From the NCBI GenBank assembly GCA_903813345.2, contig CAIIXF020000004.1, forward strand, positions 8,017,525 to 8,081,524: a stretch of DNA of 64,000 nt. The letters are read 5' to 3'. Positions 2,088-8,670 of the stretch are shown here, piece by piece (the first letter of the stretch is position 1; each line of letters opens with the position of its first letter). Made by a program: the position numbers and the translations under genes. The stretch comes from Owenia fusiformis. Taxonomy: Eukaryota > Annelida > Polychaeta > Sabellida > Oweniidae. The notes under the pieces are model-generated. The model made no database searches, was not told the origin of the DNA, and worked only from the letters and a program-made list of their open reading frames with translations.

Positions 2088-5000
2088 TTATATTATAGTA
2101 CAAGAACAACATCTTCTATTTCCAGATTGATCAGGGTTATCTGAAACATTAGAATGGTTTTCAATTAGACCACACTGTTCAATCAGTTCTAATGCTCCTG
2201 TGTAATCAGCATGGGAATCTCCTCCATACTGGTGAGCCATGTCAAGACTTTGCAGAAAATAAGACAAAGCTTCTGGGTTCTCCCCAATGTCAAGATGTAA
2301 TCTACCTATTTTTTGTAATAAGCTAATGATATCAGGATGAGGACTGTCTTGATAGATCAGTCTATACGTTGCCAGACTCTCAAGATGATATTCTAGTGCT
2401 TGAGTCTTATCTCCCATGCTATGATACACATAGCCAATGTTGTGAAGTGAAGAAGCAACGTGTATGTGGGGACCATCTTGATGGATCAGTCTTAACATTT
2501 CAAGACTCTCGTGATGATATTCCAGTGCTTTAATGTGATTTCCCATGTAAAAGTACACACTGCCAATGTTGTGAAGTGAGGTAGCAACATCTAGGTGGGG
2601 ACTGTCTTTATGGATCAGTCTTCTCATTGCTAGACTCTCTTGATGATGTTCCAGTGCTTTATTGTTGTCTCCCATGCTTAGATACACACTGCCAATGTTG
2701 TAAAGCGAAGAAGCAACATCTGGATGGGGTCTCTCTTGATGGATAAGTATTCTTATTGCTAGACTCTCTTGATGATGTTCTAGTGCTTTAGTGTTATCTC
2801 CCATACTTAGATACACACTGCCAATGTTGCGAAGTGAAGTGGCAACATCTAGGTTGGGATTGTCTTGATATTTCATCGCTTTAATGTGATCTCCCATATT
2901 ATGATACACACTGCCGATTTTGTCAAGTGAGTTAGCAACATCTGGGTGGGGACTGTCTTGATGGATCAGTCTTCTCATTGTCAGACTCTCATCATGATTT
3001 TTCAGTGCTTGTGTGTTGTCTCCCATACTTAGATACAAATTGGCGATGTTGTAAAGTGAAGTAGCAACATATGGGTGGGGACCGTCTTGATGGATCAGTC
3101 TATACATTGCCAGGCTCCCATGATGATATTCCAGTGCTTTAGTGTTATCCCCCATGCTATGAAACACACTGCCAATGTTGTACAGTGAAGAGGCAACATC
3201 TGGGTGGGGATTATCTTGGTGAATCAGTCTTAGCATTAATAGACTCTCTAGATGATATTTCAGTGCTTCAGTGCTATCTCTCATGCTATGATATGCATTA
3301 CCAATATTGTTTAGTGAAGTAGCAACATCTGGATGAGGACTCTCTTGATAAACAAGTCTTCTCATTGCCAGGCTCTCATGATGATATTCCAGTGTTTTCA
3401 TGTGATCTCTCATGCTATGATACACATTGCCAATGTTGTTAAGTATAGCAGCAACCTCTGGATGAGGATTGTCTTGATGGATCTCCCTCCTCATTGCCAG
3501 GCTCTCCTGATGAAATTTTAGTGCATTAGTGTGATCTCCAATGTTATGATACATGCTACCAATGCTGTCGAGTGAAGTAGCAACATCAGGGTTTGGACTG
3601 TCTTGATGGATCAATCTCTTCATTGTTAAACTCTCATGATGGTATGCCAGTGCTTTTTCCTGATCCCCCATTCTATCGTAGACTTTGCCAATGTTATTAA
3701 GTGAAATAGCAACACTTGGGTGTGGATTGTCTTGATGGATCTGCCTTCTCATTGCCAGGCTCTCCTGTTGATATTTCAGACCTTTAGTGTGATTTCCAAT
3801 GTTATGATACATACTACCAATATTGTCAAGTGAAGTAGCAACATCAGGGTTTGGACTGTCTTGATGGATCAGTCTTCTCATAGTAAGAGACTCATGATGA
3901 TATGCCAGTGCTTTATCGTGATCTCCCATTTTATCGTAAACTCTGCCAATGTTGTTCAGTGAAGTAGCAACATCTGGATGAGGACTGTCTCGATGGATCA
4001 GTCTTTCCATTGACAGACTCTTTTGATGGAATTCCAATGCTTTAGGGTGATTTCCCATGTTATCGTAAACATTGCCAATGTTGTTTAGTGAAGTTGCAAC
4101 ATCTGGATGAGGACTATCTTCATGGATCAGTCTTTCCATTGACAGACTTGCTTGATGAAATTCCAGTGCTTTAGTGTGATTTCCAATGTTATCATACACT
4201 TTTCCAATGTTGTTAAGTGAAGCAGCAACATCTGGATGAGAACTGTCTTGATGGATCAGTTTTTCTCCATGGATCAATTCAAACATTTTTAGACTCTCTT
4301 GGTGGCATTCCAGTGCTCGAATGTACTCTCCCATGCTATTATAGACACTACCAATGTAGCTTAGTGAGGCAGCAACATTTGAGTGGGGACTATCTTGATG
4401 TAGCTCTTTTTCAATTGTCTGGCTCTCATGATAATAGTCCAGTGCTTTTGTGTGATCTCCCATTTTAAGATAGACATGGCCAATTTTATTTAAGGATGCA
4501 GAGATGCCCACTTTATCTTTGACAATTTTACTCATGTCAAGACTTTCTTTTTGATATTGCAGGGCAATAGCATACTGCCCTTGTGACTCATATAGATGAC
4601 CTATTTCTTGTTGAATATAAGCTATGCTTTTCTGTTGTCCTTCTGTTTCAATCCTTTGAAGTCGTTTCAGTTCTCTCTCAAACTCAAACAATGCTCTTTT
4701 GAAGAAGAATATGTTCTTGTATAATTCTCCTCTGACTACACTATTTTCCTCAAAGAATCTCTGCCAGTATGTCCACGTGTCATCCACTTTCATATTTGAC
4801 CGGAGGAATTCACACCATGGCATGAATATGTTGTAAAATGGTAATATTGCTGTAAAACTCCTGACTGGCATAACTTCACTTGTTCCATCATTAATTGTGT
4901 CACTATGTAGGAATGATATAAGTTCCTTTTGTTGCTTATAGCTGCCATAGACCATGTGTCTTAGATTGATAACACCACAAACCATCATTTGTAGATCCTT

Positions 5001-6351
5001 CTTTGCTCTCCTAGTTAAGATGTGTTTCTTGTGCAATTCCTCTAAAACATCGAGTGGGGCTGATGATGTGCAGCCATGCATGAGCTTGAGAATATTGATT
5101 GAGATTGTAGCAAATCTATAAATATCATGCTTGGTGTGTATTTTCTTTGTGAATGACTTTGGTGATAGGGGATTCTTATTGTATTTATCTAAATCATCTA
5201 TCAGTGTCTTCATTGCTCTTTCCTTCCCAACAGTGATTTTTGGATTTTCTGTTGAGGGTGATGCTAGTATTGCATGGACTTTGTCATTGTACTCCTTCCA
5301 AAGATTTTGGTCTCCAAGTATGAGGGTTGATGTCATTAGAACATCACTAAGGTGGTATCCCTCTTTCAGTGATTCATCCTTATACTGAAATTTACTCATC
5401 TCTTCAACAGTCATGATCAGTTCAAGTCTTGCAGGCTTGCTAGTGGTAAGGTCCTTTTTAGATTTCCTACCAATAGCTGTCTTACTAGCCCATGGCTGTG
5501 TCCCATCAAAAGAGACCCCTCTGGTGGTCACTTTATCCCAAAAGTCATTGTCTGTCATGTCATTCGGAAGGTGATTGTTATAATCTGTCAAAACAGGTAT
5601 GTCTAAGCAGTTTAACAATGTTTCCCCCAAGTTAAGTACCTTTAAGTGCATGTAATAGGCTATCATACGCAGTTGCATTTTGACATGTTCTACTGGTTTC
5701 CCCAAAGGATCATACAAAATTGCCCACTCAATGTCAGAGTATGCCGTGACCTCTTGACGAGACAGGGAACCAAGTGCTAAAAATGCAAATTTACAATCAG
5801 GCTCCCCTAAAACAGAAATACAATCTTCAATCATAGATTTATAAAAATCTAAAAGCTGTTTTGTGAGTCCACCATACAGATCTTTACTGTGTTTTATAGT
5901 GTTGTCTTCATCTTCTTCTTTCATCTCTGTTGTCACCTCATCAACTGTCATGTCTTCGTTTATAATGGTATTCACTGTGGTGTTGGAATAGTCTCTTATT
6001 TCCTCCAGTATGTCTCTGTACTTCTGAGTTGAATCTTTCGTTGGCACATCATAACTTTTTGACAGCTTTTCTAAAAAGCTATTCTCGATTAGTTGAAGCT
6101 GTTCATCAATACTAACCGAGTCATGGTCTGTCGAAATGTCTCTGTCAGTAGACAGTATTTCAATTCTTCGCTTTGCAGCATTATACAATGCACATGACCA
6201 ACTGAATGTTCATACCAGATTCCTGAGGTCTGAGCTAATCTGATATGCTCTTCTCCAAGGAGACACATCAGCTCTGCCTGTTTTCTCAGTTCGGTCTTTT
6301 GGTCACAGGCAGTTATTTTGCAACCAAGTTCATACATTGTTTGGGTAACCT
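2088..6351 (-). CDS. Exon 2: nucleotidyltransferase-like domain, TPR array, CaaX tail
   Basis: The exon opens after a pyrimidine-rich acceptor at 6352-6354. The first part (6349 to about 6212) reads EVTQTMYELGCKIT and LRKQAELMCLLGEEHIRLAQ in one frame. From about 6210 the coding frame changes and stays open for over 1,360 codons to TAA at 2088-2090. Numbered from 6188, residues 140-154 (GSLSRQEVTAYSDIE) match the hG[GS]-x-DhD/E nucleotidyltransferase pattern. TPR units run from about residue 540 to the end with consensus VATSLNNIGSVYHSMGDHTK then ALEYHHESLAMRRLIHQD. Two two-unit blocks are nearly identical, and one unit lacks about 12 residues. The C-terminus is CCSCTII: a CaaX box with extra cysteines. 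Confidence 0.8.
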
Positions 6352-8670
6352 CTGAAAATGAAAAATGTTTTTGACTTATTTTTTCTTTTGTATCATTATA
6401 CCATATTCTCTCTAATAGATGGAAATACTTACACTATTTTTGAGGGCCATTATGATTTAGCAATTGATTTAATGCATTAACCTTAATCCATTCCAAAAAT
6501 TTAAAATATCTTAAAGACCCCACGGAAAGTTTCTTATTGTAGTCATTCCTAATGTTATCAAGATTTGATATATTAAATATCTGCTTGAATTATTGAAGAA
6601 GTAGTTTTGAAAAACCGTCTATCCAAAAATGAGGAATTTTTATTTACTTAAATGTCTCAATCATCTTTTTAAGTCTCCTAAAATAATATATGGATGAATA
6701 AAAAAATATCAAACTTTACATGGGACCTTTAATTATGCTATCTGTGCATGGATAAATGATACTTTAAAAAAATAGTATTGATACAAAGGTGAAATAAAGA
6801 ATATGAAGTTCTTGAGGTTAATTATTGAATGTATTAAAGTACCTCATTGTTCTTGCTTTCAACTGAAATACTTTATTGATTTTATTGATGATTATTAGAG
6901 GTGTAACTCCCGAGTCAGTACTTCGAGTACAGCTCGTCAGAGCTGCCTATACATTGGCTCGAGTTGTCCTCTAGAAACTCGCAATCTATTTCAACTCGCG
7001 AGCTAGCTATAACTCGAGTCAACTCGCGAGTTTAGCCTATCTTGCAAGCATGTAAAATGAATTCGGGTCCCAGAGATCGTGCAACATTACTTCATTAGTG
7101 GAATAAATATACCAATGATCACCATTTTTAGCGCCCGTCACCTAAAAACACTCTCAAAGCTTCACAAAGTTCAACAAATATCGTGGAATGAAGAGTTACA
7201 CCAAAAAATCAGAAAAAGATCGACTATCGAAGGAACGGGCGATAATAGAGTAGTCACTAAAATTGAATAAAAATGGTCCCCTTATTCTCACGTCGTTTAC
7301 ACGACTTTTACATAAAAAAGATGATCTATCATTAAATTAAGATCATAAGTCTTAACTTTAGATCGATAACCAGCAGTCTTTAGTATAAATAATGAAGATA
7401 ATCCGGGAAAACCATTCATTAATTTGGGGGGCCCTTCTGGGTTTTCTAAAATATTGTTTGGTTAGATTCTAGCGATCTCTCATCCTTACCGTATGTGTTG
7501 ACGTCTATACCAGATCGTTTTTGATTGAAATATGAGATAACTGCAATGAATACCACACTTTCTTATGGCCCCAACGTGTTAAACACCTTTTAGATGAGAC
7601 TAAACCAGAGAAACTTGCCGCTTGAAGTTACAGTAATTTTTTATACCCGGGTTTACAATATGTACTGGACGAAATGAATGAACTCGAGTTTTACTCGAGT
7701 TTTGGAAATATTTGGCAAGTTGAACTTGAGTTGGATTTTTCTGGCGAGTTACACCTCTAATGATTATACAAATACAACCAAGGTCGTACAGGGTGGACCA
7801 AAAACATTTGAACACAATTTTTTCTTTATTGCCACAAACACCAAACAAGATTAAGCTTTCAATTAATTGATTTTCTGTAATGAATATAAAACAAACAAGA
7901 AATAAATATTGATCACCAACTTAATTTTTGTATTGCGTGTGTTAGGAAAGAGATTCAAATATTCATTGCTTCAATATTGTATTTTTCATCACAACCTTTG
8001 CTAACCTTTCAAAAAGCCTTTATGCAAAACCTATCAGATTGTAGCAATCAGTATGGCTATTGAGGAAAGTTAAAGATGACCCCCCCCCCCCCATAAAGAA
8101 CTTGTCACTTCATCCATAAATGACTGTCAGCCATAGCTAGATCAAGCTGATTGTTCAGAGGGTGGAGAAAAGTAAATAATTAAATTCTAGGGTTTGAAAA
8201 ATTGGGTGTCCACTATCCATCATAAGAAATGGAAAATGGAGAAGAGTTATCAGACTTCGATTCTTTTGCAACAGGTATATAAGATAGATAGTGCTGACTG
8301 TTTGACTAATTGTGATCATTCCTGGCCAAGTTAATTTTCAGCTTTTACATATGAGTTAACATAAAGTATCATAACATTTTGGGGACGGATCTTGAAAAAA
8401 TTTTGGACCATTTTGAATATTACTATTTAGTTTGATTTTTTGATTGTTATGAGTACCTGGTTTATTGTTACCTGATTTCTTTTGTGGTTGGGATTGTGGG
8501 CCTGGGTTTTGTTCAACTCCTCCTCGTACCAGCAGTATCGTAATGATTTGCAGTATCAATATCATCTGTTTTGGAGATTTAACGATTCTCGATAAACGGA
8601 TTGTCTTTTTTTGCCGGCCACCATTGAATGTTCCAATGGCAACTCTCCATTGCTCCATTGAGATCCCCAT
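2088..8670 (-). CDS. 2A-leader / nucleotidyltransferase-like / TPR repeat protein (two exons)
   Basis: Minus-strand gene. Exon 1 is 8670-8472 and exon 2 is 6351-2088. The junction is inferred from donor CAG|GTAACA and acceptor TTTTCAG|AGGTT, both phase 1. Exon 1 encodes a leader with a 2A-like GVEQNPGP motif. Exon 2 encodes a linker, a polymerase-beta-type nucleotidyltransferase signature (GS at 5771-5766, DIE about 36 bases later), about 19 TPR units of 43 residues of the kinesin-light-chain type, and a CaaX end (CTII). Large invertebrate TPR proteins with a similar GSL-R-EVT-YSD-E motif are known to me from general knowledge; their function is not established. The reading frame shifts once near 6186-6212, so the gene is either broken, allelic or mis-assembled. 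The first in-frame ATG after the shift (at 5951) would give a shorter protein. Confidence 0.7.
6186..6212 (-). other. Apparent frameshift inside TPR gene exon 2
   Basis: Upstream of this point the coding-like frame contains WYEHSVGHVHC; downstream it is LYNAAKRRIEIL. The downstream frame meets a TGA at 6212-6210 and the upstream frame continues only to 6089. One base would restore continuity. No splice pair fits. A sequencing or assembly indel, a null allele or a true recoding site are the options. Confidence 0.6.
6896..7759. mobile_element. Non-autonomous hAT-type element
   Basis: Terminal inverted repeats TAGAGGTGTAACTC and GAGTTACACCTCTA are flanked by a perfect 8-bp duplication ATGATTAT (6888-6895 and 7760-7767). 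An 8-bp target duplication with this kind of end fits hAT transposons. The ends carry many CTCGAGT/ACTCG subterminal motifs. No transposase frame is seen. It lies in the intron between the 2A exon and the TPR exon. Confidence 0.85.
8472..8670 (-). CDS. Exon 1: N-terminal leader with 2A-like ribosome-skipping motif
   Basis: The ORF starts MGISMEQWRVAIGTFNGG, has a basic segment, then a hydrophobic stretch (residues 36-48, MILILQIITILLV) and RGGVEQNPGP (residues 49-58). The canonical 2A motif is D-V/I-E-x-N-P-G-P; here the Asp is Gly. Known 2A peptides make the ribosome skip the Gly-Pro bond, which here is between residues 57 and 58. Unspliced, the frame ends after 104 codons at 8356. The donor is GTAACA at 8471; a second possible donor (GTACTC) lies further into the intron in the same phase. 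Similar leaders are known before NLR-type proteins and non-LTR retrotransposon ORFs in sea urchin and other invertebrates, so an origin from a retroelement is an alternative. Confidence 0.65.
8497..8520 (-). other. 2A-like motif GVEQNPGP
   Basis: Codons GGA GTT GAA CAA AAC CCA GGC CCA. N55-P56-G57-P58 are intact, and a hydrophobic helix precedes the motif as in active 2A sequences. The conserved Asp is replaced by Gly, which may reduce activity. Confidence 0.7.

What the first reader, a model, noticed from the sequence alone, without database searches (positions are those of the whole stretch)
6186..8670. A 2A-like exon spliced to a nucleotidyltransferase-TPR protein
The hydrophobic leader plus GVEQNPGP exon lies upstream on the same strand, and its phase-1 donor fits the phase-1 acceptor of the TPR exon. 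2A-like leaders before NLR proteins are known to act as dual targeting signals: skipping gives a cytosolic protein, failure sends it to the secretory route. Here the same device would control a large TPR protein that also ends in a CaaX box. The Asp-to-Gly change in the motif may tune skipping.
Basis: partly seen in the sequence, partly recalled or inferred. Interest (0 to 1): 0.8.

Follow-up and report, generated by a model that had tools for sequence, protein, structure and literature searches.

The report
Ribosome-skipping leader on nucleotidyltransferase-TPR genes
A short first exon that should make the ribosome split the new protein in two sits in front of about fifty copies of one large gene family, resembles the start of jumping genes in the same genome, and so looks like a mobile-element device put to work in cellular genes; the copy in this window, however, has a broken reading frame.

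Summary
The leader exon, its 2A (StopGo) octapeptide, the phase-1 donor at 8472 and the phase-1 acceptor at 6351 are real, and not private to this locus. In the source genome, 51 of 64 close nucleotidyltransferase (NTase)-TPR genes have a leader mark upstream on the same strand within 60 kb, 43 of 64 within 20 kb. The acceptor is phase 1 in 21 of 21 gene bodies read. Both leader ends look constrained, and leaders diverge in step with the NTase (Mantel r 0.88, n 20). Gly at the first octapeptide position is found in 43 of 43 extracted gene leaders and is active in print, so it is no special tuner. The N-terminal module QWRxAIGxF and a 2A-like sequence also open non-LTR retrotransposon ORFs here, so a retrotransposon origin is likely. 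Skipping is predicted, not measured. Dual targeting, as in urchin NLRs, is plausible for strongly hydrophobic leaders (this one included), less so for relatives with charged tracts. The window copy is frame-broken near 6204-6205; its tandem copy is open. The CaaX end occurs only in this tandem pair among those read.

The parts
8472..8670 (-). Exon 1 coding part: 58-aa leader MGIS...NPGP plus 8 codons and 1 base up to the donor
8626..8670 (-). N-terminal module MGISMEQWRVAIGTF, conserved in gene leaders and shared with retrotransposon ORFs
   Evidence: alignments; genome pattern; pN/pS 0.25; retrotransposon copies
8527..8562 (-). Hydrophobic tract ILILQIITILLV (12-residue Kyte-Doolittle mean 3.14)
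8497..8520 (-). StopGo/2A octapeptide GVEQNPGP
   Evidence: motif class (D/G/C/N)(V/I)ExNPGP in PMC12846837
6352..8471 (-). Predicted intron, phase 1 at both ends; contains a pair of 27-nt inverted repeats
2088..6351 (-). Exon 2: NTase-TPR coding exon (frame-broken in this copy)
6204..6205 (-). Place of the frame break relative to the open tandem copy L075
   Evidence: the frame from 6351 closes at 6089
5673..5846 (-). DUF294 nucleotidyltransferase core (PF03445, 24.1 bits, cut-off 21), with motif GSLSRQEVTAYSDIE
2226..4496 (-). TPR array (PF13424 in 12 stretches, PF13374 in 14)
2088..2102 (-). C-terminal CTII and stop (CaaX-like), present only in this gene and its tandem copy among those read

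Best explanation
The exon is the conserved first coding exon of a large NTase-TPR gene family. In intact members it is spliced, phase 1 to phase 1, to the NTase-TPR exon, and its 2A sequence makes the ribosome skip the last Gly-Pro bond. One mRNA then gives a free leader peptide (54-67 residues in 37 of 43 extracted leaders; longer in others) carrying the QWRxAIGxF module, and a separate cytosolic NTase-TPR protein beginning with Pro. A minor unskipped fraction keeps the leader; where the tract is strongly hydrophobic, as here, that fraction could enter the secretory route. The leader most likely came from the 5' part of a non-LTR retrotransposon ORF. Shown: the sequence, the family-wide linkage, the matched splice phases, the constraint on both leader ends, the co-divergence and the shared module. 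Inferred: splicing in mRNA, skipping, the fate of each product and the direction of capture. The window copy itself is probably a pseudogene or a frame-broken allele.
For: Linkage: 35 of 41 leader matches with E<0.01 lie within 20 kb upstream of an NTase match on the same strand, 0 of 41 on the opposite strand. By the octapeptide alone it is 40 of 53 G-type sites within 20 kb and 45 of 53 within 60 kb, 0 opposite, against 0 of the 67 D-type sites listed, of 95. From the gene side, 43 of 64 core NTase genes have a leader mark within 20 kb and 51 of 64 within 60 kb with no other core NTase gene between. Splicing: the acceptor is phase 1 in 21 of 21 gene bodies; of 53 sequences 47 have a donor-like site, and in 46 of these the first is phase 1, the exception being a retrotransposon by eye. 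Selection: median dN/dS 0.31 over 199 pairs, all below 1; pooled pN/pS is 0.25 for the N-module, 0.93 for the linker, 0.31 for the tract plus 2A. Co-divergence: Mantel r 0.88, n 20, 0 of 9999 permutations as high. StopGo signature: across 43 gene leaders p12 is G in 43, p13 V/I in 42, p14 E in 37, and p15, the position known to be free, takes 12 different residues (p16-p19 were partly fixed by how I extracted leaders). p11 is G or A in all, matching L-rich motif 5 of PMC12846837.
Against: No RNA or protein data. The window copy is frame-broken. 13 of 64 core NTase genes have no leader mark of their own within 60 kb: 12 have none and one has another core gene in between; three of the 13 are on minor contigs (C435, C495, C409; lengths not seen). 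Six of 41 leaders are not within 20 kb: three are 22-59 kb away, one is followed by 500 N, two are taken by eye as retrotransposon ORFs. Six of 41 leaders also have an NTase match within 20 kb on their 5' side; I take these for tandem arrays. Five G-type sites that look like gene leaders have no NTase match downstream within 60 kb. One leader (L021) has DPGP, five have Q and one H at p14, and L017 lacks its ATG. A Met directly after the acceptor is conserved, so a leaderless start is possible. In the window alone the NPGP pattern is not significant.
Confidence: 0.78

Rival explanations
1. Dual-targeting device: skipped product cytosolic, unskipped product sent to the secretory route, with the ratio set by the 2A sequence.
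For: An S. purpuratus NLR 2A leader does this in HeLa cells (PMC4981915, passages read). The window tract is strongly hydrophobic, 3.14. Natural p14 Q/H variants exist in one subclade, and E14Q was reported at 56% or 26% activity (PMC12846837).
Against: Several relatives keep the 2A but have charged tracts with 12-residue hydropathy 0.9-2.3, poor signal sequences by that crude measure. Leaders here have about 30 or more residues before the tract, unlike the 26-aa urchin leaders. No signal-peptide predictor was available.
Confidence: 0.35
2. The leader peptide itself is the selected product: a released peptide with the QWRxAIGxF module acts on its own, and 2A only frees it and the NTase from each other.
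For: The N-module is the most constrained part (pN/pS 0.25), with M1 G2 Q7 R9 I12 G13 F15 invariant in a 22-sequence alignment, while the distance from module to octapeptide ranges from about 31 to 192 residues.
Against: No function known for the module; no Pfam match to the window leader. The constraint could reflect translation or targeting.
Confidence: 0.3
3. The leader exon is a relic; the working protein starts at the conserved Met just after the acceptor from a downstream promoter.
For: The Met is present in the 21 gene bodies read; 13 of 64 core genes show no leader mark of their own.
Against: Constraint on both ends of the leader and 21 of 21 matched acceptor phases are not expected of a relic.
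Confidence: 0.1
4. The exon is a retrotransposon fragment that merely lies upstream.
For: The same N-module and a 2A-like sequence open retrotransposon ORFs.
Against: Gene leaders are G-type, have a donor and track the NTase; 0 of the 67 listed D-type sites, of 95, lie within 60 kb of an NTase match.
Confidence: 0.03

Closest known systems
2A-like signal sequences of Strongylocentrotus purpuratus NLR proteins (SpNLR2A; Roulston et al. 2016, PMC4981915)
   Same: 2A at the N-terminus of members of an expanded gene family, hydrophobic tract directly before it, non-LTR retrotransposons with 2A in the same genome.
   Different: Downstream protein is a DUF294 nucleotidyltransferase with TPRs, not a NACHT-LRR protein; leader has a conserved QWRxAIGxF module before the tract and sits in its own exon; octapeptide starts with G in the 43 extracted gene leaders; hydrophobicity is not kept in all members.
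StopGo/2A elements of RNA viruses, L-rich motif 5 with p12 = G (Li et al. 2026, PMC12846837)
   Same: (G)(V/I)ExNPGP core, L-rich upstream hexapeptide ending (A/G)G.
   Different: Cellular spliced genes rather than a viral polyprotein; activity not measured here.
APE-type non-LTR retrotransposons with 2A before the endonuclease
   Same: QWRxAIGxF-type module near the N-terminus, hydrophobic segments and a 2A or 2A-like sequence in one frame (L097, L099-L102, L104).
   Different: They continue into an endonuclease (all but L104 as read) and, in L098, a reverse transcriptase-like region; several hydrophobic segments; D at p12 in these six, H at p14 in five of six, and two depart from NPGP (NPGQ, HPGP).
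DUF294/GlnD-GlnE/DrrA-like nucleotidyltransferases
   Same: DUF294 match above cut-off and a weak profile match to DrrA structures 3nku (E 0.0018) and 6yx5 (E 0.004).
   Different: Fused to long TPR arrays in a eukaryote; substrate unknown.

Membership tests
StopGo/2A element | Core octapeptide (D/G/C/N)(V/I)ExNPGP | tested here: met
   Window GVEQNPGP; family counts; definition from PMC12846837
StopGo/2A element | Supporting upstream context (for p12 = G: L-rich, ending (A/G/S)G) | tested here: met
   LLVRGG in window; p11 G or A in all 43 extracted gene leaders; motif 5 described
StopGo/2A element | Ribosome skips the Gly-Pro bond | not testable with these tools
   Needs a translation assay
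SpNLR2A-type dual-targeting leader | N-terminal position before the main protein | tested here: met
   Own exon, matched phase-1 sites; splicing itself not observed
SpNLR2A-type dual-targeting leader | Hydrophobic segment fit to be a signal sequence | tested here: inconclusive
   Hydropathy 3.14 in window, 0.9-2.3 in several relatives; no signal-peptide predictor
SpNLR2A-type dual-targeting leader | Secretory targeting when skipping fails | not testable with these tools
   Needs a cell assay
NLR protein | NACHT or NB-ARC domain | tested here: not met
   Neither is among the 18 Pfam families at E<=0.01 for the long frame 2088-6209
DUF294 nucleotidyltransferase | Pfam PF03445 above curated cut-off | tested here: met
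   24.1 bits vs 21; 24.9-32.4 bits in the five further members scanned
DUF294 nucleotidyltransferase | GS...D-x-E catalytic signature | tested here: met
   Present in 20 of 21 members; L068 not matched. That D-x-E is catalytic is recalled
Non-LTR retrotransposon copy | Endonuclease/RT in frame after the 2A | tested here: not met
   The window leader frame is followed by a donor, and the next coding exon is NTase-TPR
CaaX protein | C-terminal C-a-a-X | tested here: met
   CTII in window and CTIS in L075, but only 2 of 20 gene bodies whose long frame ends in the fetched stretch; prenylation itself not testable

The most novel reading that the evidence does not exclude
A retrotransposon's StopGo leader (QWRxAIGxF module plus 2A) was captured once as the first exon of an NTase-TPR gene, its octapeptide fixed as the G type, and the pair then amplified to about fifty genes. 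Each intact gene makes a conserved retrotransposon-like leader peptide and a free nucleotidyltransferase from one mRNA. The leader may let the host protein family act alongside or against the elements it came from.
Probability: 0.5. Interest if true: 0.82.

Novelty: new variant of a known kind. Interest (0 to 1): 0.72.

Why it matters
StopGo is described as rare in cellular genes (PMC12846837). Here one genome offers about fifty cellular genes that appear to carry it (51 of 64 core genes with a leader mark), a set of natural octapeptide variants (G-type consensus; Q or H at p14; DPGP) and a range of tract hydrophobicities. That makes it possible to ask what a cell gains from skipping. The module shared with retrotransposons gives a concrete route from mobile element to cellular leader, a question on which the 2016 paper called it fruitless to speculate. 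'Not seen in print' rests only on searches of one open-access library; the most relevant survey (Rao 2025, Cell Reports, known to me only from a reference list and one mention) was not held, so the family may already be listed there.

Tried and rejected
Rejected: chance motif (148 matches against 1 in the control across the genome; in the window alone the NPGP pattern is not significant). Rejected: random retrotransposon debris at this locus (0 of the 67 D-type sites listed, of 95, lie within 60 kb of an NTase match). Rejected: Asp-to-Gly as a locus-specific tuner (G in 43 of 43). Rejected: CaaX as a family feature (2 of 20; the end of the long frame may not be the protein's end if a further exon follows). 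N-myristoylation was considered because the leader begins MG; from recall of the PROSITE pattern, position 6 does not fit, and no call tested it. Paper searches for the NTase-TPR family gave nothing on target in the listings; passages of PMC3710099 on DUF294 did not, as far as I saw, describe such an animal family. The profile search of solved structures gave two DrrA matches (E 0.0018 and 0.004) and two weaker unrelated ones. The lineage of the genome was not determined; a guess from chromosome number and size (recalled; one paper search) was not tested.

Limits of the counts. Leaders were found with the window leader as query, so weakly similar leaders are under-counted. Core NTase genes are matches of 300 bits or more. 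Of 59 leader loci, 45 fitted the extraction pattern used; 2 of these (L033, L034) are taken as retrotransposon ORFs and were left out of the 43. That L033, L034 and L046 are retrotransposon ORFs is by eye (near-identical copies, D octapeptide, no donor, coiled-coil-like sequence); Pfam was not run on them. Of 95 D-type sites only the 67 listed were compared, and 10 of these were read (L087-L096): by eye nine run into an endonuclease-like sequence and one into a zinc-finger-like sequence; none of the ten was put through Pfam, nor were L080, L082, L083. Pfam was run on five retrotransposon stretches: endonuclease in L097, L099 and L102, a sub-threshold RT match in L098, nothing in L104. The leader marks are leader matches with E<1, the 53 G-type sites and 14 module sites that I picked. 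The linker alignment is unreliable, so its pN/pS is rough; the 199 pairs are not independent and include near-identical tandem copies.
Full report
What was claimed.

The sequence. The leader is there: 58 codons from 8670 to 8497, then eight codons and one base to a CAG|GTAACA donor, so exon 1 ends at 8472. The acceptor TTTTCAG|A has its first exon base at 6351 and is phase 1. The long frame 2088-6209 carries a DUF294 nucleotidyltransferase match above Pfam's cut-off and a long TPR array, and ends CCSCTII. Alignment with a tandem copy places a net frame change near 6204-6205. The tandem copy, just beyond the window's left end, has a 2030-aa open frame that spans the acceptor region. So the window copy is a pseudogene, a broken allele or an assembly error, and relatives with open frames have to carry the functional argument.

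A gene family, not one locus. The window lies in a 498-Mb genome of 525 contigs. The leader protein found 69 matches at E<=10, 41 of them with E<0.01. The NTase part found 83 matches, 64 of at least 300 bits. Of the 41 leaders, 35 lie within 20 kb upstream of an NTase match on the same strand and none within 20 kb on the opposite strand; 6 of 41 also have an NTase match within 20 kb on their 5' side, which I take for tandem arrays. The six leaders outside the 35 are three that lie 22-59 kb away, one followed by a 500-base run of N, and two (L033, L034) that by eye open a retrotransposon ORF.

An independent test by pattern. In the window alone the NPGP pattern is not significant: 1 match, 0.27 expected, 22 of 100 shuffles with at least one. 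In the genome, the back-translated octapeptide (D/G)(V/I)ExNPGP has 148 matches and the reversed control 1. The 53 G-type sites (control 1) and the D-type sites behave differently: 40 of 53 G-type sites lie within 20 kb upstream of an NTase match (45 of 53 within 60 kb, 0 opposite), but 0 of the 67 listed D-type sites, of 95. By a hand estimate, 64 genes times 20 kb on one strand covers about 0.13% of the two strands, so fewer than one of 53 would fall there by chance. The eight G-type sites beyond 60 kb are three retrotransposon ORFs by eye (L080, L082, L083) and five sites in leaders of gene type with no NTase match downstream: L081 with the N run, L084 followed by a TPR frame 36-41% identical to the tandem gene's TPRs, L085 which accounts for two sites, and L086. 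From the gene side, 43 of 64 core genes have a leader mark within 20 kb, and 51 of 64 within 60 kb with no other core gene between; 12 of the other 13 have none, one has another core gene in between.

Splicing. In the 21 gene bodies read (20 fetched plus the window), every one has an AG at the expected place giving a phase-1 exon start: 16, L072, four. After the 2A, 47 of 53 sequences have a donor-like site within 58 bases, and in 46 of the 47 the first is phase 1. The exception is L059, a retrotransposon by eye. Of the six without one, three are taken as retrotransposon copies (L033, L034, L046), two (L008, L031) have a phase-1 CAG|GTAT by eye, and one (L029) has none. Sequences include near-identical tandem copies, so these are not independent trials.

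Selection and co-divergence. Over 199 leader pairs with synonymous divergence 0.05-1.5 the median dN/dS is 0.31 and all are below 1. Pooled pN/pS is 0.25 for the N-terminal module, 0.31 for the tract plus 2A and 0.93 for the linker. Pairs are not independent and the linker alignment is poor, so these are indications. Leader distances track NTase distances across 20 genes (Mantel r 0.88; 0 of 9999 permutations as high). This fits inheritance of the leader with its gene rather than repeated acquisition.

The 2A itself. Among 43 extracted gene leaders p12 is G in 43, p13 is V or I in 42, p14 is E in 37 (Q in 5, H in 1), p15 takes 12 different residues, p16 is N in 42. p16-p19 were partly fixed by my extraction pattern; p12-p15 were not. 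The freedom at p15 is what StopGo predicts. PMC12846837 (abstract and sections 9, 10 and 14 read, passages of the rest) widens the core to (D/G/C/N)(V/I)ExNPGP, finds G as prevalent as D in viruses, and describes an L-rich motif 5 ending (A/G/S)G at p12, which these leaders fit. So G is no detuner. E14Q, found here in one subclade, was reported as 56% or 26% active and p14 = H above 95%, which makes that subclade the better place to look for tuning.

Dual targeting. PMC4981915 (abstract, first part of the introduction, first part of the results, and the discussion read) reports that an N-terminal urchin NLR 2A leader (26 aa) skips about 80% in vitro by a qualitative estimate and that a skipping-dead form goes mainly to the Golgi. 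The window tract is strongly hydrophobic (12-residue mean 3.14), as are many leaders, but a set that includes several of the window leader's closer relatives is charged and weaker (0.9-2.3), with the 2A intact. I read this as: skipping is the constant, signal activity a property of a subset. No signal-peptide predictor or localisation test was available.

Where the leader came from. The module QWRxxIGxF as DNA has 104 matches against 2 in the control. Of the 100 listed, 45 lie within 20 kb and 52 within 60 kb upstream of an NTase match of at least 100 bits on the same strand, 0 within 20 kb on the opposite strand. Of the other 48, three have a G-type octapeptide within 1.5 kb, five a D-type one among the 67 listed, and 40 neither. 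I read 16 of these 48. Four are leaders of gene type (L047, L081, L086, L106). Twelve are of the other kind: L049, L051 (with L097), L052, L056 and L058, near-identical by eye, and L099-L105. L097, L099 and L102 have an endonuclease match in Pfam after a 2A-like sequence; L100 and L101 look the same by eye; L103 stops early; L104 has the module and a full D-type octapeptide but no Pfam match; L105 lies just upstream of L093, endonuclease-like by eye. In these elements the octapeptide often departs from the consensus: p14 is H in L097, L099, L100, L101 and L102, L099 ends NPGQ and L101 has HPGP, which explains part of the 40. L098, from the same element as L097, has a sub-threshold reverse-transcriptase match. 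Three further copies (L033, L034, L046) open a different ORF with D at p12. The simplest reading is capture of a retrotransposon leader by an NTase-TPR gene; the reverse direction is not excluded.

The downstream protein. The NTase part has the GS...SDxE-type signature in 20 of 21 members, DUF294 above cut-off in the window and in five of five further members scanned, and weak profile matches to DrrA nucleotidyltransferase structures. Nucleotide transfer to a protein is therefore a guess. Copy number, tandem arrays and variable frame length suggest an immune-type receptor or effector family, which is inference only. The CaaX end occurs in the window gene and its tandem copy but in none of the other 18 gene bodies whose long frame ends in the fetched stretch.

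Verdict. It is a new variant of a known kind: StopGo leaders on an expanded gene family, as in urchin NLRs, but on a different protein, with a different module and a visible link to retrotransposons. Whether it is already in print is uncertain, because the most relevant survey was not held.

Noticed in passing
window 6888-7767: Inside the intron a stretch of about 880 bases is bounded by 27-nt inverted repeats, 85% complementary; possibly a non-autonomous DNA transposon.
   Followed up: no
G000:C8:34412072-34413819: The leader module occurs five times upstream of one NTase match, spaced 906, 326, 326 and 163 bases, as if the leader exon had been duplicated in tandem.
   Followed up: no
L085/L106 (C11:27982685 and 27982727): A leader with two octapeptides in tandem (GIEKNPGP twice, 14 codons apart), followed by a GGTAAG that could be a donor.
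   Followed up: partly
L047, L048, L050, L053, L054, L055: A leader subclade with GGVQLNPGP (five) or GGVHLNPGP (one), a natural set of p14 variants.
   Followed up: partly
L037, L041-L045, L086, L107: Long leaders in which the QWR module and the 2A are about 70-190 residues apart by position; the frame between them was read in L086 and L107, where it is mostly hydrophilic.
   Followed up: partly
L021 and L017: One leader ends DPGP instead of NPGP, and one lacks the ATG of its module; possible loss of function.
   Followed up: no
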